DNA of 64,000 bases from Nosocomiicoccus massiliensis. Its GTDB lineage: Bacteria > Bacillota > Bacilli > Staphylococcales > Salinicoccaceae. The stretch lies in NCBI RefSeq assembly GCF_002871345.2, contig NZ_CP136964.1:620001-684000 (forward strand), written 5' to 3'. The translations under genes were made by a program, and so were the position numbers. The stretch's first letter is position 1, and each line of letters begins with the position of its first letter. The notes below the pieces were generated by a model. It did not search any database, was not told the DNA's origin, and saw only the letters and a list, made by a program, of their open reading frames with translations. Positions 8,655 through 22,316 of this stretch are shown here, in pieces.

Positions 8655-9028
8655 TAGCGTAACTCCCTGTATCTCGCCGATGTTTTTGGCGTTTCTGATA
8701 CTGCAACTTCTACAACGTTATCCATATTTAACTCATTTTTGATTTTTTCATAGAAGAATTTTGCGATATTCTCAGAAGTTGTTTTAAAATCAAACACGTC
8801 ATTTAAATGTCTGTGATTGAGATTTTCATCTATAAATACTTTAATTGGCTTTAATAAACCAAAATCTGTAACAAAACCATCATCATTGAGTTCGTCTGAG
8901 CCTAAAGTCACTTTAACGATATAATTATGACCGTGCAGTCTTTTGCATTGATGTCCTTCTGGTAAGTAATCTAATTGATGACTCGCACTAAAATGAAACT
9001 CTTTTGTTATTTCATAATTGTAAAACAT
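8654..9028 (-). CDS. queD: 6-carboxy-5,6,7,8-tetrahydropterin synthase
   Basis: Converts dihydroneopterin triphosphate to 6-carboxytetrahydropterin in preQ0/queuosine synthesis. 124 residues, with zinc-binding histidines in FSASHQL and the RLHGHNY motif, a catalytic cysteine in the HQCKRLHGH region, and a typical C-terminal glutamate (AVSETPKTSARY). It is the first gene of queD-queE. Ribosome site CAAGGAGT precedes ATG 9028, with a TACAAT -10 at roughly 9059-9064 on the minus strand. Confidence 0.95.
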   Translation of the reverse strand: MFYNYEITKEFHFSASHQLDYLPEGHQCKRLHGHNYIVKVTLGSDELNDDGFVTDFGLLKPIKVFIDENLNHRHLNDVFDFKTTSENIAKFFYEKIKNELNMDNVVEVAVSETPKTSARYRELR

Positions 9029-9152: not shown

Positions 9153-9180
9153 TAAGGTTTATGTACGGGCACGGAGAGAT
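9153..9180 (+). repeat. Left attachment site (attL) of the integrated element
   Basis: 28 bases identical to 22200-22227. The copy carries the last bases of the tRNA-Ser 3' end (GGGCACGGAGAGAT on the plus strand) but no tRNA body, as expected for the displaced end of an attB inside a tRNA gene. Confidence 0.95.
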
Positions 9181-9199
9181 AAATAGACAGTTTTGACTA

Positions 9200-9238
9200 G
9201 GGTATAAACGTTGTTACCGCAACGGTTATGCCCTTTTT
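9200..9238 (+). terminator. Plus-strand terminator, probably for int in the circular form
   Basis: Stem GGGTATAAACGTTG/CAACGGTTATGCCC followed by TTTTT. No plus-strand gene lies upstream in the integrated state, but in the excised circle the integrase reads across attP directly into it. Confidence 0.75.
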
Positions 9239-9260
9239 GTATCTCGTTAATTCTAGTCAA

Positions 9261-9611
9261 TTACAGAGTAAAACGCCCCGTTTTTCGCCCCGTATTATAG
9301 CAAAATAATTCTTTTTCACTTAATAAATATCCTGCATAGCTATCGAGGGAAATTGTATCAGTATCACCACTAATTATAGCATATTCTATAGCATTCAATA
9401 ACTCCTGTACGGACTTCATATAATTATGGATCAGCACACTTTCATGATGATTAGAACTAATTCTAAATAGTTCTAATCTATCTAGTAAATCATCTACTTT
9501 ATAAATCATGTACAAATCGTTTTTGTTTAAGTTCATTAAATGTACAATTATCTTCTCTATTTCGTGTACATATTTAAAATAGTATGGTTTTATAATAAAA
9601 TATCGGCTCAT
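9261..9611 (-). CDS. Unknown protein at the cargo end of the island
   Basis: 116 residues from ATG 9611 (site TAGGTAGGTG upstream; a GTG at 9620 is also in frame). Charged, mostly helical-looking, with basic aromatic N-terminus (MSRYFIIKPYYFKYVHEIEK) and no signal peptide or membrane helix. I do not recognise a family. It is separated from the packaging genes by about 110 bp holding an extended -10 promoter, so it is expressed on its own, and its 3' end overlaps the CGCCCCGT arm repeats. Terminal, separately transcribed genes in PICIs and prophages are often accessory (helper interference, phage defence), but that is inference from position only. Confidence 0.65.
   Translation of the reverse strand: MSRYFIIKPYYFKYVHEIEKIIVHLMNLNKNDLYMIYKVDDLLDRLELFRISSNHHESVLIHNYMKSVQELLNAIEYAIISGDTDTISLDSYAGYLLSEKELFCYNTGRKTGRFTL
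9274..9293 (+). repeat. CGCCCCGT repeat pair, left (candidate integrase arm sites)
   Basis: Two CGCCCCGT copies 12 bp apart (start to start), inside the 3' end of the terminal cargo gene. Same sequence and orientation as the pair beside attR, so both arms of the joined attP would carry them. Confidence 0.6.
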
Positions 9612-9673
9612 TTTAAGCACCTACCTATATTTCTTTAAATAAGGCTCGTTATGAGGTTTCTCGTTATTTAGGT

Positions 9674-9682
9674 ATTATAACA
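9674..9682 (-). promoter_or_regulatory. Extended -10 promoter of the terminal cargo gene
   Basis: TGTTATAAT on the minus strand, about 60 bp before the start at 9611; the -35 is poor, as usual with TGn-extended -10 elements. Confidence 0.55.
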
Positions 9683-9724
9683 TTAGTTTACCTCTTAACG
9701 CTCCTCTGTGCCCTTCCTGTGAGG

Positions 9725-10039
9725 TCAATTTTTAACACCTTCACAAAAAATCGTTATAGTTCGGTTTTTTCCGTCATCATTCTCAATACTCGTAATATCA
9801 TAGATATTATTTTTGTATTCTATCTTATGCCAGTGTTTTATTCCTTCTCGATAACGTATTATAAAGCGTATAAACCCTTTTACGCCTCCTAGTCCACCCG
9901 CTGAAATAAAATCTCGACCTTTAAGCGTTCTTACGTCTGCATATGGTCTAAAAATAACAATATCCTCATAATCGCTTGGCATTGGTGGTATACGTTTACG
10001 CTCGATAATGTTTATTCTTTGATTAAAATGATATGCCAT
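9725..10039 (-). CDS. Phage head closure / head-tail joining protein
   Basis: 104 residues from ATG 10039, chosen because AAGGAG lies 8 nt upstream. Small beta-rich protein with family-like features of the Phage_H_T_join group (SPP1 gp16-like): N-terminal FNQRINIIERK, a middle ADVRTLKGRDFISAGG, and a C-terminal KIEYKNNIYDITSIE. It would plug the portal/connector and offer the docking face for a tail. In the island it is the last structural gene, 12 bp after terL; no tail gene follows. Family assignment is by pattern, not search. Confidence 0.7.
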   Translation of the reverse strand: MAYHFNQRINIIERKRIPPMPSDYEDIVIFRPYADVRTLKGRDFISAGGLGGVKGFIRFIIRYREGIKHWHKIEYKNNIYDITSIENDDGKNRTITIFCEGVKN

Positions 10040-10051
10040 TATATTCACTCC

Positions 10052-11692
10052 TTACTGTGCTCTAATAAATTCCTCGTAATGCTCAAATAAGCCTACATAA
10101 GCATCGAGCATACTTGCTGTACCGTCTATTCTTCTTTTAGCTGTTTGGTTTTTAATCGGTACAATATTACCGTTTCTATCCGTCAATATACTTGTGTTTG
10201 TTAAGCACCATTTAAGTAACGGGTTGTTATTGTAGTTAATTCTTTTCGCTTTTAGATCTGCACCCATGTTCTGCATCGGTAAACTTAACGTTCTTGCACC
10301 TTGGTGACACCTCACCATTTTAAAGCCGTGTTGTTCCATTTCATCAACCCAATACCTCGCACTGTAGTTGTCGTAATATATCCACAACGGTGTAATGCCG
10401 TAATCTTCAAGCATTTCCTTAAACCAATCTGTAATATCACTATAGTCAATGGTATTACCGTTACATAGCCTCAATAAGCCCTGCTCGTACCACTTGTCAT
10501 AGGGTATCTTTTCTTCTTCTACACGCTCATAGAAGTTATCACGAGGTAACCAGTACATTTGGTGTACATATCTCTTTTCTGTTTCTGGATCCATGAATAA
10601 CAGTGTGGCACACGATAAGTCTGTAGTAATACTTAAGTCTGCACCACCAATAGCGTAACCGTTTCTAAAATCTTCTATATCAAACGTTTCTTCATTGTTA
10701 ATATCATCAAAACTTAACCACGATTGCTCTGCTGTACTTCTTATGTTGAAGTCTTTAGTGAGTACACCTGTTAAGTCGTTCGGTGAGTTCTTTGCACGTT
10801 CTACTTTACGCTCTAAATCACTCACCTTTTTAATGCTATTGAGTGACGGGTTGGCTTTCTCCCACATATTAGGGTCTTTCCATTCCTCTTTACTATCTAA
10901 TTCATAAATAATCGGTAAAAAGTGCTCATCTTTAAAGTTACCGTCTACAATATTACAAGCGTACTCGTACATATCATCAAAAATAGTACCTCTTAACGTT
11001 CCTGCGGTTGTAATCATGATTAATAAAGGTTGTCTACGTGCTGATTGAGATTGTTTCATTACCTCATACATGTTTCTATCTTGTATGCTGTGTAACTCGT
11101 CTATTACAACGAGATGAGCATTTAAACCGTCTAAACTGTTTGAGTTCTTACCGAGTGCCATTAATTTGCTAAATGTATGCGGAAAGTATAGATCACTCTT
11201 ACGCTTTCTTACGTGATTAGATAAAAACTTACTTTGTTGTACCATGTTGTGTGCCTCATCAAATAGAATGTTGGCTTGTTCCTTTTTAGTAGCTATCGAG
11301 TATACTTCACTACCACCTTCACCGTCTGCAATCAGCATATACAACGCCAATGCTCCAAGTAGTGTAGTTTTACCGTTCTTACGCCCGATATAAAAGAATG
11401 ACTCTGTAAATCGTCTTAAACCTGTATCTCTATCGACAAAACCAAATAAAGCATTGATATAGGCTTTTTGAAACAACTCGAGTTCAATTGGTTTACCTGC
11501 CCATTCACCTTTTGAGTGCCTACAAAAACGCTCGATAAATTCAATTGGGCGGTTGGCAAGTTCTAAATTAAATTCAAATTGCTCACTTTCGTACATATCA
11601 TTTACAAGTTGTTCGTACTGCTTGTACAATCTTTTACTTACAACGATTTCACCGCTTTTCATTTTCTCAAAGTATTCAACCATGTAATTCAT
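10052..11692 (-). CDS. terL: Terminase large subunit (HK97-like)
   Basis: DNA-packaging motor, 546 residues. N-terminal ATPase with Walker A GRKNGKTT (about residues 103-110) and Walker B HLVVIDELHS (about 192-201). The C-terminal RNase H-like nuclease shows aspartates in GGADLSITTD and in IYYDNYSARYWVDEM. Length and motif spacing are those of a complete TerL. The start overlaps the terS stop by one base. Together with TerS and the HNH protein this gives an autonomous packaging set, unlike classical SaPIs that borrow the helper's large terminase. Confidence 0.95.
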   Translation of the reverse strand: MNYMVEYFEKMKSGEIVVSKRLYKQYEQLVNDMYESEQFEFNLELANRPIEFIERFCRHSKGEWAGKPIELELFQKAYINALFGFVDRDTGLRRFTESFFYIGRKNGKTTLLGALALYMLIADGEGGSEVYSIATKKEQANILFDEAHNMVQQSKFLSNHVRKRKSDLYFPHTFSKLMALGKNSNSLDGLNAHLVVIDELHSIQDRNMYEVMKQSQSARRQPLLIMITTAGTLRGTIFDDMYEYACNIVDGNFKDEHFLPIIYELDSKEEWKDPNMWEKANPSLNSIKKVSDLERKVERAKNSPNDLTGVLTKDFNIRSTAEQSWLSFDDINNEETFDIEDFRNGYAIGGADLSITTDLSCATLLFMDPETEKRYVHQMYWLPRDNFYERVEEEKIPYDKWYEQGLLRLCNGNTIDYSDITDWFKEMLEDYGITPLWIYYDNYSARYWVDEMEQHGFKMVRCHQGARTLSLPMQNMGADLKAKRINYNNNPLLKWCLTNTSILTDRNGNIVPIKNQTAKRRIDGTASMLDAYVGLFEHYEEFIRAQ

Positions 11693-12018
11693 TAGTTACC
11701 ACCGAGAAAGTCTAATAGTTCATCACTTGCTTGTTCACTATTTGGAAGTAATTCAATCAGTTGCTTAATGATATTACTGTAGCGTGATAACGTTGTATTA
11801 TAGCTTTTTAGTGCTGGGTGTTCACGGTAGTATTCCTGACTACCATTCTGAAATAAATCTAATACGCCTTCTTTTTTTATGATTTCTCGCAAATTGTTTA
11901 ATGTTGCATTAATGAATACGAGTTCATCATATAACGCCGTTGCTATTGGTTGTTTATTGTCGGGTACTTCCTGTAAACTTTTTTCAAGTTTCTTAAAATT
12001 AAGGTTAATCTGTTTCAT
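11692..12018 (-). CDS. terS: Terminase small subunit (P27 family)
   Basis: 108 residues from ATG 12018, preceded by AAAGGATTG; the frame is open to 12138, but that stretch is GC-rich and not protein-like. Contains the P27-type C-terminal pattern: DLFQNGSQEYYREHPALKSYN, then a helical region ending ELLDFLGG. Recognises the packaging start on DNA and passes it to TerL; a satellite-specific TerS directs packaging to island DNA. One-base overlap with terL. Probably binds the GC-rich stretch immediately upstream. Confidence 0.88.
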   Translation of the reverse strand: MKQINLNFKKLEKSLQEVPDNKQPIATALYDELVFINATLNNLREIIKKEGVLDLFQNGSQEYYREHPALKSYNTTLSRYSNIIKQLIELLPNSEQASDELLDFLGGN

Positions 12019-12081
12019 ATCGTTCAATCCTTTCCTAAATTTGCCCCATATCGTTAAATTTTTCGTGTGGAGGAAAAGTAA

Positions 12082-12134
12082 ACTCCCCGCACCGTTCCCC
12101 GAGCCCCGCACTCGCTGGGAATGAATGGGGGTAC
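12082..12134. other. Candidate cos/packaging site between HNH and terS
   Basis: A GC-rich patch in AT-rich surroundings with repeated CCCCGCAC (about 12086-12093 and 12104-12111) and CCCCGAG elements. It is located exactly between the HNH nuclease gene and terS, where cos-packaging phages of Gram-positives carry the cleavage site. Assignment is from position and composition. Confidence 0.5.
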
Positions 12135-12428
12135 TCATCTTTTTATCAATTGTCCGTTCTCATCAAAGGTTAGTCCTTCTTCCGTTGCATCTGTTTTAAA
12201 GTGTTCTTTGTTATGACAATCTATACATAGGCTTTCTAGTAGACTCCAGTTCAAACTAACGTTAGGATCATCATAATTACTATCGTTTAAGTAGGTTTTA
12301 TGGTGGCATATAGTCGCTACACCACCACAACGCTCACAAATATAGTTTTTACTTTGCATATATCCATTACGGCACTTTCTCCACGCTTTAGACTTGTAAA
12401 ACGCTGTTCTATCCATGATTTGACTCAT
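12135..12428 (-). CDS. HNH endonuclease
   Basis: 97 residues (or 93 from ATG 12416). Zinc-ribbon cysteines CERCGG and CIDCHNKEH frame a catalytic HHKTYL, the standard HNH layout. In cos phages with P27 TerS, such HNH proteins cooperate with TerL in making the cohesive ends. Its start overlaps the end of the connector gene, so it is translated in the same operon. The position directly beside the GC-rich candidate cos site and terS supports a packaging role. Confidence 0.92.
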   Translation of the reverse strand: MSQIMDRTAFYKSKAWRKCRNGYMQSKNYICERCGGVATICHHKTYLNDSNYDDPNVSLNWSLLESLCIDCHNKEHFKTDATEEGLTFDENGQLIKR

Positions 12429-12693
12429 TTATAAGCGTTAAAGCCGTAAAAAGACTATCAATTGTACGTCTTAAGCGTTCGCTATCCTCTGTTTGAGTGT
12501 CAAACCATAGTAAAAGAATGAATTTAGCAACGTTTTGGGCTACTGGGTGAGCCTCTTTATCATTTGGGCACTTATACCCTGTACTAACCTCAATATAGCT
12601 AGGAATAGCATTAATTAATGGAATAATTATCTCATCAGCGTAATCATCATCTATTCTTAAGAACTCTCTTGCCTCTTCTAATTTAATAATCAT
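12409..12693 (-). CDS. Head-tail connector (gp6/gp15-like)
   Basis: 94 residues from ATG 12693, chosen for the AGGAAGTG site; the frame opens earlier at 12729. Helical protein with the family-typical N-terminus (LEEAREFLRIDDDYADEIIIPLI) and a GYKCP turn in the middle. Forms the ring below the portal. It lies between the capsid and HNH genes and overlaps the HNH start. Confidence 0.8.
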   Translation of the reverse strand: MIIKLEEAREFLRIDDDYADEIIIPLINAIPSYIEVSTGYKCPNDKEAHPVAQNVAKFILLLWFDTQTEDSERLRRTIDSLFTALTLINESNHG

Positions 12694-12753
12694 TTTATTC
12701 ACTTCCTTATTAAAATAGGACACTAGCATTACACCAGTGCCCTAATAAATTAT

Positions 12754-13968
12754 TTATACTTCTTCAACTGGAGCAGTTAGTTTAATGAATGCCTCATCTA
12801 CTAAAGGTTTTGTATCTGCAATTGCCATTGCTCTATAGTCGATTAAACCACTTCTAAATGATGACTCACGAGATACTTCAAGCATCATACCGTCTGAAAT
12901 GTTTACGCCCATATATTTAAAGTCACCGAGTAAAATAACGCCGTCATCAATGTGATCATCAATGATAACCTCTTTACCTAAAATATGACCAACCGACTCA
13001 TTGCGTGGGTCTTGTAGGAAGATAGGTCTGTTGTTGTTATCCACGATTGAATACACTGTGTTATATAGCGTTGCGTTGCTCATTGCAAATTTTGCATTGC
13101 TAGAATATCCACGCTTTAATTTAGCGAGTGCTTTCGTAAAGTCTAAATACTCACCTTTTAAATCTAGAGTGTTTGTGTCGTTCCACTGAACGCCAGTTAA
13201 TAGCCCTGTGCCTTGTTCTTTACCTGTTCCGTTAATTACTGCATCAGCGATTGCCTCCATAACACAAGAAGTTAATTCCTCTGTTACATATGACTCGAAC
13301 GCTTGAATTGACATTTTGTGTGCTTTAGCACTGATAGAGAATACTTTGATAATCTCGTAACCGTCAAATTGGACAGTAGCAGTTTCTACAATTTCAGCAT
13401 CAACTAACTTACCTTCTGTATGCCATTGTGCTTTGTCGTGTGGTGTTCCAATTGGAATAGCAATCTTTGTAGGCATATTGAAACTACGAACGTGTGCAAG
13501 TAGTCCGCCTTGCTTTTTAGCTAATCGGATAACCTCGTTAAGTGTTTGAGTTGGTAATACGGCAGATGAGTTTGTAGCTGTGTTAAAGTTGTTCGCTCTA
13601 CCTTCTACCTTTTGCTTTTCCATTGCTGTATTGAATGTACGTTCTTCAATACTTGTTAATTCTTGTCCGAGCATCTTTTTGAAGAATGCTAATCTGTATT
13701 CTTTTGTATCAAAAATGTTTTCAGTCGGTACTTCCTCTTTAAAGTTCATTTGTGTAATTGGGTTGAAACTTCTTTCTTCCGTAGCGTTTTCTTTTTTCTC
13801 TAAAATATTTTCTTTCACTTTCATCAGTCCTTCAATTTCAATATTTAATTTCTTCACGTCTGCATTTGGGTTAGTGTCGATTTCCTCGTTGATTTCTTCC
13901 GCACGTTTCTCAATTTCATTCATTGAGTAATCACGGTATTTGTTAAAGTATTCTTGTACTGTATTCAT
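12754..13968 (-). CDS. HK97-family major capsid protein
   Basis: 404 residues. The N-terminal 100-120 residues are a charged coiled coil (delta/scaffold domain) removed by the prohead protease; the HK97 fold follows (ATNSSAVLPTQTLNEVIRLAKKQGGLLAHVRSF onward in two parts). Typical features are the GTGKEQGTGLLTG loop and the C-terminal RSGLIDYRAMAIAD region. Starts 3 bp after the protease gene. Having its own capsid gene separates this island from SaPIs that reshape helper capsids. Confidence 0.95.
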   Translation of the reverse strand: MNTVQEYFNKYRDYSMNEIEKRAEEINEEIDTNPNADVKKLNIEIEGLMKVKENILEKKENATEERSFNPITQMNFKEEVPTENIFDTKEYRLAFFKKMLGQELTSIEERTFNTAMEKQKVEGRANNFNTATNSSAVLPTQTLNEVIRLAKKQGGLLAHVRSFNMPTKIAIPIGTPHDKAQWHTEGKLVDAEIVETATVQFDGYEIIKVFSISAKAHKMSIQAFESYVTEELTSCVMEAIADAVINGTGKEQGTGLLTGVQWNDTNTLDLKGEYLDFTKALAKLKRGYSSNAKFAMSNATLYNTVYSIVDNNNRPIFLQDPRNESVGHILGKEVIIDDHIDDGVILLGDFKYMGVNISDGMMLEVSRESSFRSGLIDYRAMAIADTKPLVDEAFIKLTAPVEEV

Positions 13969-13971
13969 TGT

Positions 13972-14547
13972 TTAAATCTCCTTTTTTAGTAATTGATTAA
14001 TTTTAATTTTTGTTTGTTGCCTTTCATGACTGTTAAGTTCATTCCATACTTCCTCAATTTGTGAACGTGCCTCCACGCTCGTTTGTGGATATGCTGGAAA
14101 TGAAACCACTGAACACTCATACACTTTATTGATTTTAGTAATCGTTCGTGTATTTGTTTTCGCATCATAATGACTACCGTCATCATCTACAGTAAAAGCA
14201 AAACTCATACCTTTTAAATCGCCTCGTTCTACTGCCGTATGAACACTGCGACCTTCTTCGGTGTGTGGAAGTTCCGCCCTTATTTCTAGCCCTGCCGAGC
14301 CTAGTCTTAACTGCATTGTCTTTGGCGTTCGTGCGAGTGGTATTCTCTTAACGTCATGATTTATATACAGTGATACATCAGATAAATCAGTATCATCTAA
14401 TGCACCACGCTGTATAACTTCTTTATACGATCCAAATGGAGCGTTTATAACTGTTGGTGTGTCATACAAAATCGGTACACCTTCTAATATGAGTTCATTG
14501 TTTTCTTGCTCGTCTGCTCTCAATTCTGCTATTCTAAACTCTTTCAT
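13972..14547 (-). CDS. HK97-family prohead protease (S78)
   Basis: About 191 residues from ATG 14547 (GGAAGGTGAT upstream). The family's catalytic serine/histidine regions are visible: LYINHDVKRIPLART containing the histidine, and GMSFAFTVDDD with the serine. It cleaves the capsid delta domain during prohead maturation. Its 5' end overlaps the portal gene by 14 bp and it is followed immediately by the capsid gene, the classic portal-protease-capsid order. Confidence 0.93.
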   Translation of the reverse strand: MKEFRIAELRADEQENNELILEGVPILYDTPTVINAPFGSYKEVIQRGALDDTDLSDVSLYINHDVKRIPLARTPKTMQLRLGSAGLEIRAELPHTEEGRSVHTAVERGDLKGMSFAFTVDDDGSHYDAKTNTRTITKINKVYECSVVSFPAYPQTSVEARSQIEEVWNELNSHERQQTKIKINQLLKKEI

Positions 14548-15748
14548 TTTTATCACCTTCCGACTTGTTTAATTGGTATTGTTCAGCAATATTTTTATCA
14601 ATGTAGTTTAATGACATAATGTGTTCATCTCCATTTTCTATAGGAGGTAAATTAAGCATCTCTAGGGCTTGATTTGGTGTGAGTATGCCTAATGGTACTA
14701 ACTTCTCAATAGTTGCCGTCTTACTCTTGTTACTAGCGAACTGTAGCCTATTAGACTCAAATATAATTTCATTACCAAATGACTGCTCACGCTCTGTAAA
14801 TACCTTTTCAGTGAGTTCCTGCGATAACTGTAATGCAAATGGCTCAATGATACTTTCATAAAATGCACTCCACTCATCTTCTGAATATGTGCTATTTACA
14901 ATACGTTCACTTACACCGAGATAGTCATATATCTTTGTTTTGATTGCCTCAATTTCATTACTGTTAATATCTGCATCAGTTGGTTTAAGTGGTATATATT
15001 CCGCCTTTGCATCAAGTGAGGCAATGCCTCCAGTGTTTGAAATATCAAGGTAATCTCTTACAAAACTATCTTTTTCCTTCTTCAAATTATCGGGGCTGAT
15101 TGTTTGGCTATACTTTAAAATTCCTTTTAAGTTAGTACTATTCCTAATAGCGTGTGTCATGCCCTCGTTCTGCATATGTGCGACTTCTAAAGTCGGTAAA
15201 ATAGATGCGTTAGAGTCACCGAGTAACTCATTAGAGTTGAAGTGTCGTCTTAATATGATGAGTTGATTAATATGAAACGTTGCGTGTTTCCCGTTGGCAA
15301 ATAAGAATTTACAATACAGTTCACCGCTTAAGTCCGTGACATATTCCATATTCACCGAGTGCAACGGGTATATTGCACGTAAATTACCGTTATCATCTTT
15401 ATCCAGTAATGCAAATGCGTTGTTGTGAATGTATAAATGCGTACATAATTTATAAAGAAAATCGTAACTCGTCATATATGGGTTTGGTCTGTTACCAAGT
15501 ATTCTATTTAGTTGTGTGTTACCGTTGGAACGCTCACTATAGTTTTTAGTGTGTACAATGTGGCGACCTCTTAACTTCCCAATATTTCGAGCGATACTGT
15601 CAACTGCAAATCTAAATACCTCATTCTCATAAGCATTACCAGTAAAGCTATTGAATATGCCAATGTTAGAAGTTAGTAACTCCAGCCGTTCAGTTTGCTT
15701 TTCTTTAATCTTGTTAATGCCTAATATTCTATCTAGTAAACTTGCCAT
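14534..15748 (-). CDS. HK97-family portal protein
   Basis: 404 residues from ATG 15748 (MASLLDRILG), preceded by GAAGGG; the upstream open frame to 15850 lies inside another gene. Typical portal content: N-terminal FNSFTGNAYENEVFRFAVDSIARNIG, NPYMTSYDFLYKL in the wing, and the late SERIVNSTYSEDEWSAFYESIIEP helix. Forms the dodecameric DNA channel. First gene of the head module. Confidence 0.94.
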   Translation of the reverse strand: MASLLDRILGINKIKEKQTERLELLTSNIGIFNSFTGNAYENEVFRFAVDSIARNIGKLRGRHIVHTKNYSERSNGNTQLNRILGNRPNPYMTSYDFLYKLCTHLYIHNNAFALLDKDDNGNLRAIYPLHSVNMEYVTDLSGELYCKFLFANGKHATFHINQLIILRRHFNSNELLGDSNASILPTLEVAHMQNEGMTHAIRNSTNLKGILKYSQTISPDNLKKEKDSFVRDYLDISNTGGIASLDAKAEYIPLKPTDADINSNEIEAIKTKIYDYLGVSERIVNSTYSEDEWSAFYESIIEPFALQLSQELTEKVFTEREQSFGNEIIFESNRLQFASNKSKTATIEKLVPLGILTPNQALEMLNLPPIENGDEHIMSLNYIDKNIAEQYQLNKSEGDKNERV

Positions 15749-16271
15749 ATGTTCCCTTCTTTCCCATTGCAAATAATGATATTGGCGGTAAGTCCATAAA
15801 ATAATTTGAGAGTTGGTAAAGTTGGTATTTACCGCCATGTGTGTAATCAATTTTTTTAGTTCTTTCCACGTATGCTATTTCTCTTTTAGATCTCAACTTA
15901 CCAAGTTTGTTATTTACAGTTTTTGAAAACTCGTCAAATTCCGTACAATCAATCATGAATTGACCTGTTTCATATTGTTGTCTTAAGCAATTATCTATAT
16001 GTTCATTGCCGTGCTGGTCTAACAATTCATGAGATACTTCTAATTGCTTTTCGAGTTTCTCAATGCGATTGTCGATATGTGCCAAATCAATTGCGGTTAT
16101 TTCTACACTTCTTGCATAAGTCGATATGTCACCAGTTTGTTCATCAAATGCCATTCTCGGCACTGATTGAAAAATCAAATCTTCCCGTTTATCCTTTAAT
16201 TCCTGTATCTGTTGGTTTATGTTGTACGGGTTTATCTTCTTGTATATTGAATATTGATTAAAGTACTCCAA
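15729..16271 (-). CDS. Island protein of unknown function before the head genes
   Basis: 180 residues, no recognised family. Two coiled-coil-like stretches (about residues 18-35 and 60-85, rich in K, E, L and Q), no membrane segment, basic C-terminus. It lies between the replication origin and the portal gene, overlaps the portal start by 20 bp, and opens the structural operon. A role in late-gene control, size determination or DNA packaging is possible; none is shown. A site at the GAGGTGATC region precedes ATG 16271. Confidence 0.7.
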   Translation of the reverse strand: MEYFNQYSIYKKINPYNINQQIQELKDKREDLIFQSVPRMAFDEQTGDISTYARSVEITAIDLAHIDNRIEKLEKQLEVSHELLDQHGNEHIDNCLRQQYETGQFMIDCTEFDEFSKTVNNKLGKLRSKREIAYVERTKKIDYTHGGKYQLYQLSNYFMDLPPISLFAMGKKGTYGKFTR

Positions 16272-16275
16272 TTAG

Positions 16276-16560
16276 ATCACCTCGGTTAGTGAAAAGGTTA
16301 GTGAAATTTCACCTTTCGCTAACCGTGAAACTCCATGTGTGCCATGGTTTTACTCCATGTTGGTTAGTGGTTAGCGTAACTTTCGACTTATTTCTGTTTT
16401 TTTCTTCTTTTCGCCTTTTTTATCTACTATAGAATTATTTTTAAAAATATAGATATTTACGCTAACTCGCTAACCAAAACCTTAAAACCTTTGGTACGTA
16501 TGGCTTACGCTGGTTAGTGAAACGATTTTTTTCGCTAACTTTCGCTAACCTTCACTAACT
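16276..16560. other. Iteron-type replication origin of the island
   Basis: About eleven copies of GGTTAGTGAAA or its complement TTTCGCTAACC (for example 16284-16294, 16296-16306, 16314-16324, 16369-16379, 16456-16466, 16512-16522, 16530-16539, 16540-16549, 16551-16559) flank an A/T-rich core at about 16385-16460. Staphylococcal islands keep an origin of this design directly downstream of rep, and this block abuts the end of the Rep gene. No gene fits here. Confidence 0.85.
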
Positions 16561-18141
16561 TTTTTTATTTTCGTAAACAACGTATGCGATTGGGTCTAAA
16601 GGACTATAAAAAGTAAAATCTTGTCTTTCGCTATCGTCTTTTAAATCTGCTATTATATCGGGCGTTATTTTTTTAGTGCTTTCTTCATAATCTTTAATTG
16701 CATAGTTTTTAAAATCTTTATGAAATTTGCGACTGCCTAAAGCACGGTAATTGTATACTTCACAAAACTTTTCATATCCTTCAAACACAAATCTTTTAGG
16801 TATATATTCAGCTTTCCAATTTTTAAATATGTTCTTATAAAACTCATAAACTGGGTCGTTTTCTTCTTTGTATATTTCCATTGCATCTAGGGTTGCTTTT
16901 GGCTGAATAAATTTATCAAACTCCATTTTAATTGCCTTATTAAGAACGTACTCGAGAACTTCTTTTTTATGAATGTATTCATCTTTTATTCTTTTATCTT
17001 CAATTGCACCGTTAAAATCTGCTCTAAAAGGTACAATTTGTATCCTGCGTAATAGTCCGTGTGTTTTATCTTTAAACTTTGGCATTCCATTTGTTGATTG
17101 AATTATCGTAGGCGTTAATTCTAACGTGTACGGTTGTTTGTTTTTGTATTCAATCATAACTGGATCACCAGTAATAAGACTTTTAAATACTGAAGAATTA
17201 TCAACGTATACATTTGGCGGTACGTCATCACCTAAAATTAGTGATTTTCCAACCATTGAACTAGTTATAAAACGTTCATCAAATTGGTCTACTTTAATTG
17301 CTTGATAGTTATTCTCCCCTATAAGATTTGTTAAAAACTTTTGAAATGTACCCTTACCGTTATTACCTTCACCAGTTAAGAAGAACGCTTTACCTCTTGT
17401 ATAGTTTCCGTTTAATGTTTCATTTATAACTTGCCATAACAATGTTTTTAGATCTGCATCATTACAAGCAATTGACGACAACCATTCTTCTACATTCCAT
17501 TTCGGTTTTTTAGGGTTATCAATATAATTTGTTGATATTTTAGTAGTGAATATATAATCGGGGCTAAATGGCTCTAGTTTTTTAGTTTTGTTGTTAAATA
17601 TGCCATTATTAACCGCTATTAAATTTTTATCTTTTGTTGGTTGTTTAATACTTAATTTTTGCCTTAAATGATAAATAACATTGTTGGCATGGTTTTCAGT
17701 AAAACTTTCTTCTACATAGCTAATAACTCTTTGTATATAGAATAGATTGACCGTATAAATTCCTTCATCAGATAAATACATTCCAATTCTGCTATTCTCT
17801 TGATCATCAAATAAATTAAATTTAACTAGACCAGTTTCAATAAATAAATTAGCAACCTGTAATGGACTTAATCGTTTAACCTCTTGAGGCTTTTCCATAG
17901 TTGCTCTACGATACTCATTAATTTCTTCTAGCTTTGTGTTTCTTGCTTGTTTTAATCGTTTTTTTAATTCGTTTCCATAAGGTAAATCTGATTTATTTTC
18001 TTCTTTTATTTTTTTAATCTCTCGATATATCTTTGAGTTAATCGGTTTACCAGTTTCACGAGCAGAGTGTTTCTCTCTGCCCGTTTCACTAGTAACATCA
18101 ACTAATTCAATATCTGCATATTCTTCTAGCTTTTTTGCCAA
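16555..18141 (-). CDS. Replication initiator/helicase (D5-like primase-helicase, PICI Rep)
   Basis: 528 residues. The SF3-type helicase centre has Walker A GEGNNGKGTF (about residue 258), Walker B SLILGDDVPP, and a following STNGMPKF sensor region; the N-terminal part resembles D5_N. In SaPIs the Rep protein is a helicase that binds iterons and opens the origin; the iterons begin in the last codons here. A 2-bp gap from the primase gene shows a pri-rep unit. The C-terminal 100 residues, basic and aromatic, probably bind DNA. Confidence 0.9.
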   Translation of the reverse strand: MAKKLEEYADIELVDVTSETGREKHSARETGKPINSKIYREIKKIKEENKSDLPYGNELKKRLKQARNTKLEEINEYRRATMEKPQEVKRLSPLQVANLFIETGLVKFNLFDDQENSRIGMYLSDEGIYTVNLFYIQRVISYVEESFTENHANNVIYHLRQKLSIKQPTKDKNLIAVNNGIFNNKTKKLEPFSPDYIFTTKISTNYIDNPKKPKWNVEEWLSSIACNDADLKTLLWQVINETLNGNYTRGKAFFLTGEGNNGKGTFQKFLTNLIGENNYQAIKVDQFDERFITSSMVGKSLILGDDVPPNVYVDNSSVFKSLITGDPVMIEYKNKQPYTLELTPTIIQSTNGMPKFKDKTHGLLRRIQIVPFRADFNGAIEDKRIKDEYIHKKEVLEYVLNKAIKMEFDKFIQPKATLDAMEIYKEENDPVYEFYKNIFKNWKAEYIPKRFVFEGYEKFCEVYNYRALGSRKFHKDFKNYAIKDYEESTKKITPDIIADLKDDSERQDFTFYSPLDPIAYVVYENKKS

Positions 18142-18143
18142 TA

Positions 18144-19016
18144 CTATCTACCTCCCTGCAAATGTTTTTTGAAGATAGATTTAAAAGTACTGTCAAATTC
18201 CTTTTGACTATCTGTGTAACTCTCGTGCTCGTATCTGTGGCAATGCCACCAACCATTTAACAATTCATATAATATTAATTCATCTACTTCTTTATTAAGT
18301 AAATGACCGAGTAACTTCGTGAGCCCTTCATTTCTACTACCTTCAAAACCACCATCTCTAGCGATACTTCTGTACTCTACTAATCTTTCTTCATATGTGT
18401 TTGTAAAATCTAATTTAATTTTTCTAACTTCTTGATCTAAAACTTCTTTAAGCCCTTCTACATTCAAAGGCTCACCTTCAAAGTGATAAAATTCAAAGTT
18501 ATCTAACTGTTCACGCTTAACCGTTGGCATGTTCATTGCTAGACTGATTGACTCACAATTTATGTCATAGATTGGTAATTCATACGCTTTAGCTAAAGTT
18601 CGAATAAGTACCTTGTACTGTTCGCTACTTAATTCAACTGATTTATCAAAAGGTATAATCAATCTGTATCTAGGCTTATTGTCTATAAGTTTGTGTTGAT
18701 AAGTTGAATACATTGCAAATGTGTTATTTCCTTTTTTAGCTAAATGCTCATACATATTTGGGAAGTCTGCGGGTATATCATCAATATCAATAGTTGCCAT
18801 AGATCTATTTACAACGTTTTCGTTATTTCTTCTATCTACGACTTTACCGCCGATAAATACACCGTTATCCCCTTTGTTTCCAACTACAACCTTGCTAATC
18901 ACTTCTAAAAATTTAGACCATTTCATAGTTTGGTATCTTAAATCTGTTACATTTCTAACTCCACTGCTATAAGTTACCGCTGTTTCAAAATCGTTGTTTA
19001 AATTGATATTTTTCAT
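18144..19016 (-). CDS. PICI primase (Pri)
   Basis: 290 residues with an N-terminal primase-like fold (ATIDIDDIPADF acidic motif, KPRYRLIIPFDKSVELS) and a C-terminal helical region of the primase alpha-helix type (GSRNEGLTKLLGHLLNKE). Lays RNA primers for island replication together with the helicase encoded 2 bp downstream. Preceded by an AGGAG-type site in AATAGGAGATAAAA. The leader (19017-19163) is covered by a candidate antisense RNA. A PrimPol-type polymerase is a close alternative description. Confidence 0.85.
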   Translation of the reverse strand: MKNINLNNDFETAVTYSSGVRNVTDLRYQTMKWSKFLEVISKVVVGNKGDNGVFIGGKVVDRRNNENVVNRSMATIDIDDIPADFPNMYEHLAKKGNNTFAMYSTYQHKLIDNKPRYRLIIPFDKSVELSSEQYKVLIRTLAKAYELPIYDINCESISLAMNMPTVKREQLDNFEFYHFEGEPLNVEGLKEVLDQEVRKIKLDFTNTYEERLVEYRSIARDGGFEGSRNEGLTKLLGHLLNKEVDELILYELLNGWWHCHRYEHESYTDSQKEFDSTFKSIFKKHLQGGR

Positions 19017-19072
19017 TATTTTTATCTCCTATTCTTCTTCTAAAATGCATAGGAGTGTGCTATAATATAGGT

Positions 19073-19181
19073 GTGAACGTCTGAACGTTCATCTGTAAAT
19101 TTGATAACATAATTACAGCACACACCTTGTGTGTTGATTTCCTTTAAGCCTTTGCTATCTCAATTAGCATTGGCTTTTTTT
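19073..19181 (+). ncRNA. Candidate antisense RNA over the pri leader
   Basis: A TGCTATAAT extended -10 (TATAAT at 19061-19066) on the plus strand, followed about 110 bp on by a plus-strand intrinsic terminator (19146-19181, stem AAGCC..TGCTA/TAGCA..GGCT with seven T). In between are a GTGTG/CACAC hairpin and no ORF with a start site. It would be complementary to the pri-rep leader. Not a known family to me. Confidence 0.5.
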
Positions 19182-19394
19182 AATTTCATCATGTGTTAGC
19201 TTAATGATAATATCCGCTAGTATGCGTACGTCATTGACACAAACGCCTAACATTGTATTTTCTTGTTTCATCATTCTTAAAGCTGACTCAATATCATCTA
19301 TCTTTTCAGCTATTGAAATTGCTAATAGTCTGACCTGCTCATTGTGTATCTCGTTATCAACTAATAAATCTTCAATATCAAAATCTTTAATCAT
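19164..19394 (-). CDS. Small early island protein, unknown
   Basis: 76 residues from ATG 19394 (GAGGGAT site; a frame from 19409 is also open). Acidic and helical (IEDLLVDNEIHNEQVRLLAISIAEKIDDIESALRMM). No motif recognised. Overlaps the preceding gene by a few bases, so part of the early operon running from 20309 leftwards. Its last codons overlap the plus-strand terminator of the candidate antisense RNA. Confidence 0.6.
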   Translation of the reverse strand: MIKDFDIEDLLVDNEIHNEQVRLLAISIAEKIDDIESALRMMKQENTMLGVCVNDVRILADIIIKLTHDEIKKSQC

Positions 19395-19581
19395 TTTTAT
19401 ATCCCTCATTTAATTCATGTTTTTTAAAGTCCTTTAACATTTCGATACATTCATTAAATTTTTTGTGTTCGTCTGCATTTTTAAAACTGAAATTTTCAAT
19501 TTCGAGTATATCCACTAAATCATGTAATGCTTCAAAATAACTTTCTACCTTCAATTTGTTTAATCGAGTAATATTTTTCAT
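19387..19581 (-). CDS. Small early island protein, unknown
   Basis: 64 residues, highly charged and helical, without a recognised domain. A strong AAGGAG site precedes ATG 19581. Overlaps the next gene and follows the 19595-19831 gene after 13 bp, so it is a member of the early operon. Confidence 0.65.
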   Translation of the reverse strand: MKNITRLNKLKVESYFEALHDLVDILEIENFSFKNADEHKKFNECIEMLKDFKKHELNEGYKND

Positions 19582-19594
19582 TGTTATGTTCTCC

Positions 19595-19831
19595 TTATAG
19601 ATCTATGTTTAATTCATTTTTTAATTCATGAAGTTCAAACCTTGCGACTTCATCAACTATATCTGTAGGTATAGAACTTTCCATAATATTTACGTCACCT
19701 CGTAAATCTTCATGTTTATGTTCTAAATCACAATAGCTACCTTCAAGGTTGCTTAACGTTTTTTCGATTTCTTCAATTTTCTTCTCGACATTTTCTAATC
19801 TCTGTAAAATACTTTCATTCATATCATTCAA
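19595..19831 (-). CDS. Small coiled-coil island protein
   Basis: 78 residues. Residues 5-50 form a clear heptad coiled coil (ILQRLENVEKKIEEIEKTL), followed by an acidic tail. Its start overlaps the end of the upstream gene by 8 bp, with AAGGGGA as ribosome site. An oligomerising accessory protein; function unknown. Confidence 0.65.
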   Translation of the reverse strand: MNDMNESILQRLENVEKKIEEIEKTLSNLEGSYCDLEHKHEDLRGDVNIMESSIPTDIVDEVARFELHELKNELNIDL

Positions 19832-20102
19832 TTCCCCTTATCATATGTTTATTTAGATAATTCAAAGCCTCGTCTACCTTAATGTAATATTTTCTAGACC
19901 CTTCAAATCTGTATACACATTTTTGAAATGCTGGGTCTGTTAATAGCTTGGAACGAAAATCGAACTCACTAATATTTGTTTTTTCTTTAAACTGATTACT
20001 CGACCAATAGCCTAAAAACTCATTTTCTTCTAACGATTGTTCGTGTAGTGTTTCTTTTACCGCTGATTTAATGAGTTCCTTAAAAAGTAATTCATTGAAC
20101 AT
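19824..20102 (-). CDS. Possible excisionase/DUF771-type DNA-binding protein
   Basis: 92 residues. The C-terminal part (YWSSNQFKEKTNISEFDFRSKLLTDP then FEGSRKYYIKVDEALNYLNKHM) has the helix-turn-helix plus wing pattern of MerR-like excisionases and staphylococcal phage DUF771 proteins. It lies directly after the Cro-like gene, where excisionases and early DNA-binding proteins are usual. It is the best Xis candidate in the island, as no other is apparent. Assignment tentative. Confidence 0.55.
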   Translation of the reverse strand: MFNELLFKELIKSAVKETLHEQSLEENEFLGYWSSNQFKEKTNISEFDFRSKLLTDPAFQKCVYRFEGSRKYYIKVDEALNYLNKHMIRGIE

Positions 20103-20309
20103 TTAACTCACCTCCTCTAAACCGTGTATAAAGTTATCAACTGTGATACCTAAATAATCACAAATATTTAATACTGTGATTAAACTAGGGTTTTTAGTTT
20201 TTTCATGATAAAGACCATAAATCGTTGTTTTAGAAACACCAGTATTTTCATAAATCTCTGATACTGATATTTTCTTTATCGCTAAAATCACTCTTAATTG
20301 ATTTTTCAT
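20103..20309 (-). CDS. XRE-family Cro/Str-like regulator
   Basis: 68 residues from ATG 20309, preceded by GGGAGGTGTG (the frame is open to 20324). A single helix-turn-helix domain: SVSEIYENTGVSKTTIYGLYHEKTKNPSLITVLNICDYLGITVD. First gene of the leftward early operon, divergent from the repressor gene across a 144-bp operator region, the stl/str arrangement of PICIs. Confidence 0.85.
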   Translation of the reverse strand: MKNQLRVILAIKKISVSEIYENTGVSKTTIYGLYHEKTKNPSLITVLNICDYLGITVDNFIHGLEEVS

Positions 20310-20324
20310 AATCACACCTCCCAC

Positions 20325-20453
20325 TTGTGACTAAATATTTAGTGTAATCACTAACTATTTACATAGTAAGATATATAATTATTATTGTCAATACTCTGTA
20401 TTTAATTAGTGTGTATTGTGATATAGTAGTATGTATAAAAAGGAGTGAAGACA
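20325..20453. promoter_or_regulatory. Divergent early/repressor promoters and operators
   Basis: The leftward promoter is clear: TTGACA (20386-20391) and TACTAT (20363-20368) with 17-bp spacing. A perfect palindrome ACTAAATATTTAGT (20330-20343) lies in the leftward leader, with related TCACTAAcTATTTA and TTAGTGTG half-sites nearby, likely operators for the two XRE proteins. A TATAGT -10 (about 20420) may serve the rightward repressor gene. Confidence 0.7.
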
Positions 20454-21086
20454 ATGATAAAAAGCAGATTAGCAGTGTTAATGGCGGAAAGAGGTTTAAA
20501 AATTTCAGATGTTTATTATGAAACAGGGATCTCAAAAACTACTCTAATGGCTATATCAGAAAATACGGGTAAAGGAGTTCAGTATGAAACAGTAGATAGA
20601 CTTTGTAACTATTTAGGTGTGACACCATGCGAGTTTTTTGAATACTCTCCTTATATGATTGATTTATCAACTTACTTTAAGAGTGAAAGAGAGATGAGTA
20701 ATTTAACTTTAAAAGTTAAAAAGCAATCGTATGAGAAAAACTTTTATTTCACCTTATCGATTAATTCAGATCCATACTATTTTCCAATAGATAAAAATGA
20801 TTACACGGCGATTATTAGAATTAATCTTGAACATACAGATTTATATGATAATGAGGAATTTTATAAAATTTTAGATGATTTAACAGTTTCATTTAGAACA
20901 GACTTCCTAAATGAATTGGTATATAAATCAAAAAAGTTAATAATTAGAGCCATTAAAGAAAACCATGAATTAGATAAGGTACTTATTGCAGATAAAAAAA
21001 ATGATATAAAACAAGGCGACAAAGTGTTAATAAGGTTGTTTGAAGATACAAGACATGAAAAATTAAAAAGAATGACATTATCATAG
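20454..21086 (+). CDS. Island master repressor (Stl/CI-like, XRE family)
   Basis: 210 residues from ATG 20454 with AAGGAGTG upstream. The N-terminal helix-turn-helix (LKISDVYYETGISKTTLMAI) closely parallels the divergent Cro-like protein. The C-terminal 140 residues have no recognisable peptidase (no LexA/CI Ser-Lys pattern). In PICIs such repressors are inactivated by a helper-phage protein bound by this C-terminal domain, not by RecA cleavage. Its stop is 9 bp before the integrase start, so repressor and integrase are probably co-transcribed in the integrated state. Confidence 0.85.
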   Translation: MIKSRLAVLMAERGLKISDVYYETGISKTTLMAISENTGKGVQYETVDRLCNYLGVTPCEFFEYSPYMIDLSTYFKSEREMSNLTLKVKKQSYEKNFYFTLSINSDPYYFPIDKNDYTAIIRINLEHTDLYDNEEFYKILDDLTVSFRTDFLNELVYKSKKLIIRAIKENHELDKVLIADKKNDIKQGDKVLIRLFEDTRHEKLKRMTLS

Positions 21087-21095
21087 GTGATAACC

Positions 21096-22145
21096 ATGAC
21101 TAACATCACCATTCAAGAAAGAAAAGATATAAAAGACAAAAATAAGCGTTTCAGATATGTATTTCACTACAAGAATAAGCGTTATAGAGGTGGTGGCTTT
21201 CCAACTAAAGCAATTGCACGACAAAAAGCACGGGAGCATTTAGAACAGCTGGAAGGCTCACCAGTCGCAACTGAAAAAACTTTCTCTAAGTATTATACAG
21301 ATTGGTTATTACTGGAAAATAAGAAAGAAGAAATAAGTAAAAAGCAATATTACTGGTACACTCGTTCATTAGATTTATTTAATGAGTATTTTGGTGAAGA
21401 TATTAAAATAAATGAGATAGAAAAGATAGATTATAGAAACTTCTTAAAGTGGTATGGTGATGATCGTGCATTTAGTACACTTAAAAAAGTACACTCTTGT
21501 TTGTCGCAAGTCTTTAAATTTGCCCATAGTGAAGGAGATATTTTCAAAGACCCTACTTATCAAGCAAAGTTAAGAACGTACGCTACAGGTGTAAATCAAG
21601 CTGATGAGGACAAGTTTATAAAAAGTACTGATGATTACTTAAGATTGATTGAGTACTTTAGAAGTCGTAAAGAACGCTCTTACCTACTACTCTTTATAAT
21701 TGCAATTACTGGCTCACGATTTTCAGAAACAAATAAACTCACTGAAAAAGATTTACTGGAAGGTAATAGAATACACCTACGAGGAACAAAAAATGAAACA
21801 AGTGATCGTATTGTAGCTATTAGTGAAAAAGATATGAATTATATCAGAAAAAGAATAGATGAGTTACCTAAAAAGGCTAATGGAATGATTTTCGATTTAT
21901 CCCACAATGCTGGTTTAAAATCTTACAGAAAAGCATTCAAAGATTTAAATATTAATTATGATCGTACACTTCACTCATTACGTCATACACATTGTAGCTA
22001 TCTTTTAAGAAAAGGAATTAATATTGAAGTTGTATCTAAACGTTTAGGACACAAAAGCACCACGACTACGAGGGAAATTTATTCTCATATACTTAAGGAA
22101 TTAGAAGATGAGAATGCAAAAAAAATACGGGACTTGTTTTCATAA
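21096..22145 (+). CDS. int: Tyrosine-type site-specific integrase
   Basis: 349 residues from ATG 21096, chosen for the AGGTGAT site. N-terminal arm-binding domain (FRYVFHYKNKRYRGGGFPTKAIARQKA), SAM-like core-binding domain, and catalytic domain with R (TGSRFSE), HxxR (HSLRHTH), H (GHKS) and the tyrosine nucleophile in REIYSHIL. Ends 55 bp before attR. Acts on the 28-bp core in tRNA-Ser. CGCCCCGT repeats at both element ends are plausible arm sites. Confidence 0.97.
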   Translation: MTNITIQERKDIKDKNKRFRYVFHYKNKRYRGGGFPTKAIARQKAREHLEQLEGSPVATEKTFSKYYTDWLLLENKKEEISKKQYYWYTRSLDLFNEYFGEDIKINEIEKIDYRNFLKWYGDDRAFSTLKKVHSCLSQVFKFAHSEGDIFKDPTYQAKLRTYATGVNQADEDKFIKSTDDYLRLIEYFRSRKERSYLLLFIIAITGSRFSETNKLTEKDLLEGNRIHLRGTKNETSDRIVAISEKDMNYIRKRIDELPKKANGMIFDLSHNAGLKSYRKAFKDLNINYDRTLHSLRHTHCSYLLRKGINIEVVSKRLGHKSTTTTREIYSHILKELEDENAKKIRDLFS

Positions 22146-22156
22146 TAAAATGAAAA

Positions 22157-22175
22157 CGCCCCGTATACGCCCCGT
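22157..22175 (+). repeat. CGCCCCGT repeat pair, right (candidate integrase arm sites)
   Basis: Two CGCCCCGT copies (22157-22164, 22168-22175) just after the int stop. A matching pair lies at 9274-9281 and 9286-9293 near the left end, in the same orientation. Confidence 0.6.
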
Positions 22176-22199
22176 GAATGACGGTAAACGTTGATATAT

Positions 22200-22227
22200 T
22201 AAGGTTTATGTACGGGCACGGAGAGAT
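22200..22227 (+). repeat. Right attachment site (attR)
   Basis: 28 bases identical to 9153-9180. Its right half is the 3' end of the intact tRNA-Ser gene. Confidence 0.95.
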
Positions 22228-22302
22228 TCGAACCCTCGCGCCGGAATGAACCGACCTACACCCTTAGCAGGGGCGCCTCTTCAGCCACTTGAGTACGTGC
22301 CC
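22213..22302 (-). tRNA. tRNA-Ser (GCT), integration site
   Basis: 90-nt tRNA with acceptor GGGCACG/CGTGCCC, discriminator G, long variable arm and anticodon GCT in CTGCTAA. CCA is not encoded. The element sits at its 3' end and leaves the gene intact. Confidence 0.95.
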
Positions 22303-22316
22303 AAAAATAAAAATGG

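What the first reader, a model, noticed from the sequence alone, without database searches (positions are those of the whole stretch)
9153..22227. A 13.1-kb tail-less, capsid-forming satellite (cf-PICI-like) in tRNA-Ser
Seen: int, divergent repressors, pri, rep, iteron origin, and intact portal, protease, capsid, connector, HNH, TerS, TerL and head closure between exact 28-bp repeats, with no tail or lysis gene. Known: capsid-forming PICIs make and fill their own heads and use helper tails. Inference: this is such an element in a non-aureus Staphylococcaceae host, and a helper siphophage exists.
Basis: partly seen in the sequence, partly recalled or inferred. Interest (0 to 1): 0.85.

Follow-up and report, generated by a model that had tools for sequence, protein, structure and literature searches.

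The report
Tail-less capsid-making phage satellite
A 13-kb mobile element in a bacterial tRNA gene carries what is needed to build and fill a small virus head but no recognisable tail, so it probably borrows tails from a helper phage; it is a good new example of a known kind of satellite, and its relatives suggest that the head-to-tail joining part is swapped between elements.

Summary
Observation confirmed. A 13,047-bp element sits at tRNA-Ser(GCU) between exact 28-bp repeats; a same-genus genome has the empty site. It encodes an integrase, divergent regulators, primase, D5-type helicase, an iteron origin and an intact head and packaging operon (portal, protease, capsid, Ad1, HNH, TerS, TerL, Hc1). 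No tail or lysis family was recognised.

It does not look like a deleted prophage. Of 135 related loci, 80 (75 distinct capsids) keep the same head-gene order. Sixteen with placed ends measure 12.8-15.2 kb, in four identified kinds of site. Ten phage records place the terminase before the portal. Forty-six satellite-order TerLs form one clade apart from 18 phage-type ones (support 92). Against: one distant relative (L063, capsid 43%) has a tape-measure gene.

Best reading: a capsid-forming PICI, a known kind reported from Bacillaceae and 'possibly' staphylococci. Induction, capsids and helper tails were not testable.

New in this analysis: Hc1, facing the tail, is over all pairs the most divergent head gene. 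It changed class at least four times on the capsid tree; two elements whose capsids differ at one residue carry Hc1 proteins 14% identical. A conserved terminator-like hairpin follows the capsid gene. Helper and host name are unknown.

The parts
9153..9180 (.). att copy 1 (28-bp exact direct repeat, distal end of element)
22200..22227 (.). att copy 2, overlapping the 3' end of tRNA-Ser
22212..22303 (-). tRNA-Ser(gct), integration target (host gene)
   Evidence: ARAGORN; Rfam; empty site in G018
21087..22145 (+). tyrosine integrase
   Evidence: PF00589 2.6e-20; phrog_1
20445..21086 (+). HTH repressor (Stl/CI-like role inferred)
   Evidence: PF13443
20103..20324 (-). divergent small HTH regulator (Cro/Str-like role inferred)
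   Evidence: PF13443; promoter-like sites lie between the two genes, but such sites are below chance number in the region
19824..20102 (-). small ORF (phrog_5920/823, unknown; DUF771 below cut-off)
19164..19831 (-). three small ORFs (19595-19831, 19387-19581, 19164-19409), unknown
18144..19016 (-). primase-like protein (pri)
   Evidence: phrog_9765, phrog_256
16555..18141 (-). D5/SF3-type helicase (rep)
   Evidence: PF19263, PF03288, PF08706; phrog_864
16272..16554 (.). putative replication origin: 11 GTTAGYG iterons in both orientations
15729..16271 (-). ORF of unknown function at the variable pre-portal locus
   Evidence: no Pfam/PHROG at 1e-3; variable locus in relatives; model poor, pLDDT 50
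14534..15850 (-). portal protein (likely true start 15748)
   Evidence: PF04860 5e-52
13972..14556 (-). prohead protease (S78)
   Evidence: PF04586
12754..13968 (-). HK97-type major capsid protein
   Evidence: PF05065; 1923 homologues
12716..12744 (-). terminator-like hairpin between capsid and Ad1 genes, recurring in relatives
   Evidence: 11 predicted pairs, 5 with both-side changes
12409..12729 (-). head-tail adaptor Ad1
   Evidence: PF05135, phrog_40
12135..12428 (-). HNH endonuclease (packaging type)
   Evidence: phrog_119
11692..12138 (-). small terminase TerS (core from an internal Met)
   Evidence: phrog_1066; phrog_2343 3e-5; position
10052..11692 (-). large terminase TerL
   Evidence: PF20441, PF03354
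9725..10048 (-). head closure Hc1 (motif class here called B)
   Evidence: PF05521 7e-17; phrog_25
9261..9620 (-). orphan ORF, 119 aa
   Evidence: one homologous cluster only in the protein search

Best explanation
The block is an apparently intact, integrated phage satellite of the capsid-forming PICI kind. Shown: an integrase with att repeats at tRNA-Ser, an empty site in a relative, its own replication genes with an iteron region, a complete head and packaging operon, and no recognisable tail or lysis gene. Inferred: a helper phage relieves the repressor; the element excises and replicates from the iterons; its own portal, protease and capsid form a small head; TerS, TerL and HNH package the 13-kb genome; Ad1 and Hc1 close the head; a tail assembled by the helper docks on Hc1; helper lysis releases the particle. 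Relatives suggest that Hc1 is an exchangeable joining part that may set which helper tails fit.
For: Gene content. att repeats and empty site. 80 of 135 loci, with 75 distinct capsids, share the exact order portal-protease-capsid-Ad1-HNH-TerS-TerL-Hc1. 16 of 37 examined loci have placed ends, 12,847-15,174 bp, median 13,645. 23 of the 120 listed capsid homologues have 12.3-14.1 kb as longest contig (counted by hand). Capsid matches only 24 of 50,697 phage records, at most 28.8% identical. TerL: 46 satellite-order rows on one side of a branch, SH-aLRT 92, from 18 phage-type rows. Ten phage-collection records place the terminase before the portal. Published cf-PICIs average 14 kb and have the same gene set (PMC10803314, PMC10690885, PMC13230959, passages). 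Hc1: lowest correlation with capsid identity (0.70; other genes 0.78-0.90); at least 4 forced class changes on the capsid tree; L089 and L091, capsids with 1 difference in 420 columns, Hc1 14% identical.
Against: No experiment and no reads: excision, induction, capsids and tails are unseen. No helper was found: PhageMin_Tail is absent from all 3 same-genus genomes held and present in 4 of 33 in the family. The window's own assembly is not held. The published cf-PICI capsids could not be compared and the founding paper is not held. Several ORFs are unassigned. L063 (Sporomusa, capsid 43%) has a tape-measure gene two ORFs after its capsid and no TerL, HNH or Ad1 match in the locus, so tail-type genes do occur in the wider family. 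An ORF of L038 has a weak tail-family hit (9e-5). In L091 the terminase changed together with Hc1, so packaging specificity, not tails, could drive that exchange; 7 of the 9 discordant pairs involve L091.
Confidence: 0.88

Rival explanations
1. A deleted (cryptic) prophage that lost its tail and lysis genes by chance.
For: Head genes are of phage type, and tailed phages with homologous head genes exist (G024 prophage). A distant relative, L063, has a tape-measure gene.
Against: Similar size and the same permuted gene order in many hosts and several sites; the named genes are all open; satellite-order TerLs group apart; terminase sits after Ad1, not before portal as in the ten phage records.
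Confidence: 0.04
2. A classical SaPI-type PICI that steals helper capsids and also carries spare head genes.
For: Same plan of integrase, divergent regulators and pri-rep (SaPI plan recalled); 3 and 4 of 130 scanned ORFs match TscT and TscA (their link to SaPIs is recalled).
Against: Capsid, portal, protease and both terminases conserved in 80 of 135 loci make little sense if helper heads are used; TscA/TscT not found in the window's own ORFs.
Confidence: 0.04
3. A gene transfer agent or other domesticated particle that packages host DNA.
For: Head genes without an evident full phage; PMC12846349 (passages) groups an E. coli cf-PICI capsid with a GTA capsid by structure.
Against: Own integrase, att sites, empty site, iteron region, sporadic distribution (capsid matched in 1 of 33 family genomes, at 32% identity), and homologues on unit-length contigs point to a selfish element.
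Confidence: 0.02

Closest known systems
Capsid-forming PICIs (cf-PICIs; founding paper of 2023 not held, known here through papers that cite it)
   Same: Head genes (capsid, portal, protease, adaptor, closure), HNH, TerS, TerL, regulator, about 14 kb, tail taken from a helper (PMC10690885, PMC10803314, PMC13230959, passages read).
   Different: The host appears to lie outside the groups named in PMC10803314 (which include Bacillaceae, Lactobacilli, Enterococci, Streptococci), though PMC12597102 calls staphylococci possible carriers. Whether published members share this gene order was not tested.
SaPIs and other classical PICIs
   Same: Integrase, divergent regulators, pri-rep, att sites (SaPI plan recalled); TscA/TscT in some relatives.
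   Different: SaPIs redirect helper capsids (PMC12409344, passage and abstract); this element has its own capsid and terminases.
MulchRoom/MiniFlayer satellites of Streptomyces phages (PMC10690885, passages)
   Same: Own capsid and packaging genes; MulchRoom's tail appears to come from its helper.
   Different: Virulent helpers, terminal repeats, no obvious replicase, no significant similarity to cf-PICIs according to that paper.
Tailed phages PhiSepi-HH1, nd12, CBP1, JD033
   Same: Homologous HNH, TerS, TerL, portal, capsid, in most also Ad1 and Hc1.
   Different: Terminase precedes portal; the records go on into annotated tail genes or (PhiSepi-HH1) a very long ORF in the tape-measure position; capsid under 30% identical where tblastn found it.

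Membership tests
cf-PICI | Encodes capsid, portal, protease and head-tail connectors | tested here: met
cf-PICI | Encodes HNH, TerS and TerL | tested here: met
   TerS by weak family hit and position
cf-PICI | Lacks tail and lysis genes | tested here: met
   Window: no such family at 1e-3; several ORFs unassigned. Relatives: only 25 of 126, 25 of 31 and 25 of 37 families were displayed, so single hits may be hidden; weak tail hit in L038; tape measure in L063
cf-PICI | Integrated, with integrase and att repeats | tested here: met
   empty site
cf-PICI | Genome of about 14 kb | tested here: met
   13,047 bp; 16 relatives, median 13,645 bp; 14 kb average from PMC10803314
cf-PICI | Own regulator and replication genes | tested here: met
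cf-PICI | Capsid sequence groups with published cf-PICI capsids | not tested
   Founding paper and the satellite survey are not held
cf-PICI | Induced by a helper phage; makes its own small heads; takes helper tails | not testable with these tools
   Needs a carrier strain and a helper
Classical SaPI-type PICI | Depends on helper capsid; no own major capsid gene | tested here: not met
   Own capsid, portal, protease and TerL
Complete or cryptic prophage | Tail and lysis genes or remnants, or tailed close relatives | tested here: not met
   within the limits told (searched 5 kb after TerL; L063 is a distant exception)

The most novel reading that the evidence does not exclude
Across a Bacillota-wide lineage of tail-less satellites the head is conserved while Hc1, the last head protein before the tail, is traded, duplicated and moved as a separate piece. 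Hc1 would then be the adapter that fits a satellite's head to a given helper's tail, and tail compatibility could be read from sequence alone.
Probability: 0.35. Interest if true: 0.7.

Novelty: new member of a known kind. Interest (0 to 1): 0.5.

Why it matters
It adds a well-bounded, apparently intact capsid-forming satellite with an empty site in a related genome, and places it in what looks like one old, mainly Bacillota lineage with a fixed, rearranged head operon. If Hc1 is the tail adapter, which helper tails a satellite can use becomes a question that sequence comparison and simple gene-removal tests can address.

Tried and rejected
Cryptic prophage: judged unlikely because the close relatives examined are of one size class and one gene order. 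Hc1 taken from a known phage: the window's Hc1 gives 28% in the 40 listed of 113 records, and two Bacillus-type Hc1 proteins give at most 42% (25 of 175 records listed) and 34% (9 records). The donor for L091 looks like another satellite lineage, nearest L030 (HNH 85%, TerS 82%, TerL 92%, Hc1 77%).

Host name: not obtained; the last protein search, on a flanking nuclease, gave three unnamed clusters. ORF 15729-16271: no family, poor single-sequence model (pLDDT 50), so no fold search was made. cos site: no conserved non-coding stretch stood out in the DNA coverage profile. Papers: none held all of 'head closure', 'satellite', 'tail', 'capsid-forming', nor 'phage satellites', 'capsid genes', 'Staphylococcus hominis'; only these searches lie behind my saying that I saw nothing in print on Hc1 exchange.

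Rows dropped and limits: in the att analysis 16 of 37 loci were used; 17 had no shared repeat of 12 nt in range, nearly all with the contig cut near the integrase, and 4 (L024, L044, L061, L077) had none longer than 13-14 nt. L035 was kept with 14 nt because it lies in a tRNA-Arg end. The second copy was sought only within 5 kb after TerL, and loci without an integrase before the capsid were not examined. Thirty-four permuted-order loci hold at least 5 kb after TerL. Twelve loci have an unmatched ORF of 600 aa or more after the capsid; I scanned those of L038, L046, L050, L063 and L118, not those of L025, L041, L042, L053, L057, L070 and L080. The second scan of relatives' ORFs took 47 of the 130 and left out some ORFs after TerL. 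The TerL tree had 64 rows: ten phage records, rows of L028-L081 over 400 aa, the window and 11 chosen viral loci. Hc1 classes A and B are motif patterns of mine, loosened between (15 of 104 unclassified); the capsid tree used 90 of 96 rows. The hairpin alignment took 62 sequences; of 101 distinct ones, 13 fold weakly.
Full report
What is there. The element lies between exact 28-bp direct repeats at 9153-9180 and 22200-22227; the right copy overlaps the end of tRNA-Ser(gct), 22212-22303 on the minus strand. Start-to-start spacing is 13,047 bp. From the tRNA inward come an integrase, a repressor, a divergent small HTH gene, small ORFs, a primase-like gene, a D5-type helicase, an iteron region and the late operon: portal, protease, capsid, Ad1, HNH, TerS, TerL, Hc1, followed by an orphan ORF. 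The iteron region holds 11 of the 18 GTTAGYG sites of the window. The orphan ORF 9261-9620 had one homologous cluster in the protein search.

Empty site. In same-genus genome G018 the genes flanking the element (8654-9028, which I take from memory to be queD-type, and the nuclease 22683-23285) lie about 600 bp apart. The left flank aligns at 84% up to L145 position 1560, the right flank at 82% from 1597, where tRNA-Ser starts at 1596. So the 13 kb were inserted at this tRNA. In G019 about 2 kb of other DNA lies between the same flanks.

Not a remnant, as far as tested. The capsid gave 1,923 homologues. Among the 120 listed, 23 have a longest contig of 12.3-14.1 kb, against 8 with 9-12 kb and 6 with 14.1-25 kb (counted by hand), which suggests unit-length DNA in samples (inference). 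Three collection scans and one search gave 135 loci. Of these, 80 have exactly portal-protease-capsid-Ad1-HNH-TerS-TerL-Hc1, with 75 distinct capsids; 4 have Hc1 before portal instead; 1 has both; 8 have the phage order (27-32% capsid identity); 42 are truncated or variant, among them L001, whose genome G024 shows TerL before the capsid and a tail hit after it. Sixteen loci with usable ends measure 12,847-15,174 bp, median 13,645. Identified sites are tmRNA (L034, L036), tRNA-Arg (L035), tRNA-Val (L047) and the groEL 3' end (L028, L030, L033 confirmed as Cpn60; L029, L032, L042 by the same or nearly the same end sequence).

Phage comparison. 24 of 50,697 phage records match the capsid at 1e-5, at most 28.8% identical. 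TerL matches 2,635 records, best 52%. In ten phage-collection records fetched (one an unannotated faecal scaffold), the terminase precedes portal and, where seen, capsid. In a TerL tree of 64 rows, the 46 with satellite order lie on one side of one branch with SH-aLRT 92 (quick method, no bootstrap); some rows have long branches, so this is support and not proof. The window lies beside Macrococcoides and Staphylococcus members.

Tail genes. 124 unmatched ORFs from the 16 bounded relatives and 6 from the window were scanned against three libraries, and 47 of them again. Displayed families are mostly replication, HTH, unknown, toxin-antitoxin (TscT, TscA) and restriction types. One ORF of L038 has a weak tail-family hit over 46 residues; one of L050 matches a minor head family.

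A result against a clean picture. L063 (Sporomusa silvacetica, capsid 43% identical) has helicase, portal, protease, capsid, two small ORFs and a 970-aa tape-measure protein (1.3e-130), with an integrase about 3 kb further on; no Ad1, HNH, TerS, TerL or Hc1 match was found in the 21-kb locus. It may be a compact prophage or a satellite with its own tape measure; PMC12987554 (passage) reports putative tape-measure genes in some cf-PICIs. Large ORFs outside the ends of L038 and L050 match endolysin/LysM-type families and look like host genes; that of L046 is a primase/helicase. It does not change my odds for the window's element, whose close relatives lack such a gene where tested.

The Hc1 result. 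Over 69 relatives with all eight genes and capsid identity of at least 58%, median identity to the window is 74% TerL, 64% capsid, 57% HNH, 56% protease, 53% portal, 53% Ad1, 43% Hc1 and 36% TerS, so TerS is lower than Hc1 in this comparison. Over all pairs Hc1 is lowest (41%, 10th percentile 20%) and least correlated with capsid identity (0.70; others 0.78-0.90). Hc1 falls into two motif classes, 22% identical between and about 50% within; examples of both match Pfam PF05521. On a capsid tree of 90 rows the class changes 5 times by parsimony, and well-supported branches force 4. Of 183 pairs with capsid and TerL both at least 85% identical, 9 differ in class, 7 of them through L091. L089 and L091 are mostly 92-99% identical from integrase to capsid, apart from a patch at 2.4-3.0 kb; from within Ad1 on they fall to 62-88% and end in Hc1 genes 14% identical as proteins. 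Their capsids differ at 1 of 420 columns. L032 and L100 differ in class with TerS 90% and TerL 88% identical, so the terminase need not change with it. Several changes rest on few elements.

Hairpin. Between capsid and Ad1 lies a terminator-like hairpin (12716-12744) that recurs in relatives; in 62 aligned sequences 11 pairs are predicted, 5 with changes on both sides that keep the pair. I read it as a brake that keeps capsid protein in excess of neck and packaging proteins (inference). It was not compared with phages.

Helper. PhageMin_Tail was found in none of 3 same-genus genomes and 4 of 33 in the family, and in 8 of 12 and 6 of 13 genomes carrying relatives, 6 in each over the cut-off. 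This neither shows nor excludes a helper. The family's Hc1 matches are 34% and 31%, in G002 and G013.

Literature. I read passages, not whole papers: PMC10690885 and PMC13230959 for the gene set, PMC10803314 for size and host groups, PMC12597102 for the remark on staphylococci, PMC11389934 for three capsid radiations, PMC12409344 for SaPIs, PMC12846349 for capsid structure grouping, PMC11984184 for a 13,944-bp putative PICI in Macrococcus bovicus that specialised tools did not detect (whether it makes capsids is not said), PMC12987554 for tape-measure genes. The founding cf-PICI paper is not held, so exact placement among published members is open.

Verdict. A new member of a known kind, clearly bounded and apparently intact. 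The part worth following is the exchange of Hc1.

Noticed in passing
L063:5127-19045: A Sporomusa relative (capsid 43%) has helicase, portal, protease, capsid, a 970-aa tape-measure protein and an integrase, but no terminase match in the locus: a compact prophage, or a satellite with its own tape measure.
   Followed up: partly
L032:7531-7839 and L032:14214-14528; L028, L084, L085, L086: Hc1 is duplicated in the Priestia megaterium element (before portal and after TerL) and found only before portal in four other elements.
   Followed up: partly
L073:14220-15590 and 15829-16920: A Catenisphaera element carries an EcoRI-type methyltransferase and a GmrSD_N/HNH protein after Hc1, probably anti-phage cargo.
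   Followed up: partly
L034:4738-5040 and others: Relatives encode TscT (confirmed for L034); 3 and 4 of 130 scanned ORFs match TscT and TscA.
   Followed up: partly
L038:14555-15847 and L050:14550-15110: Cohnella elements have extra genes after Hc1, one with a weak tail-family hit and one matching a minor head protein family.
   Followed up: partly
L040:11797, L046:3804, L118:7271, L126:11030: A short (180-192 aa) tyrosine-recombinase-like ORF sits inside the late operon next to HNH.
   Followed up: no
L146 (G019:C10): About 2 kb of other DNA lies between the left flank and tRNA-Ser in another same-genus genome, perhaps a different insertion at the same site.
   Followed up: no
L088: A second integrase and regulator set follows the satellite closely, suggesting tandem elements.
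   Followed up: no
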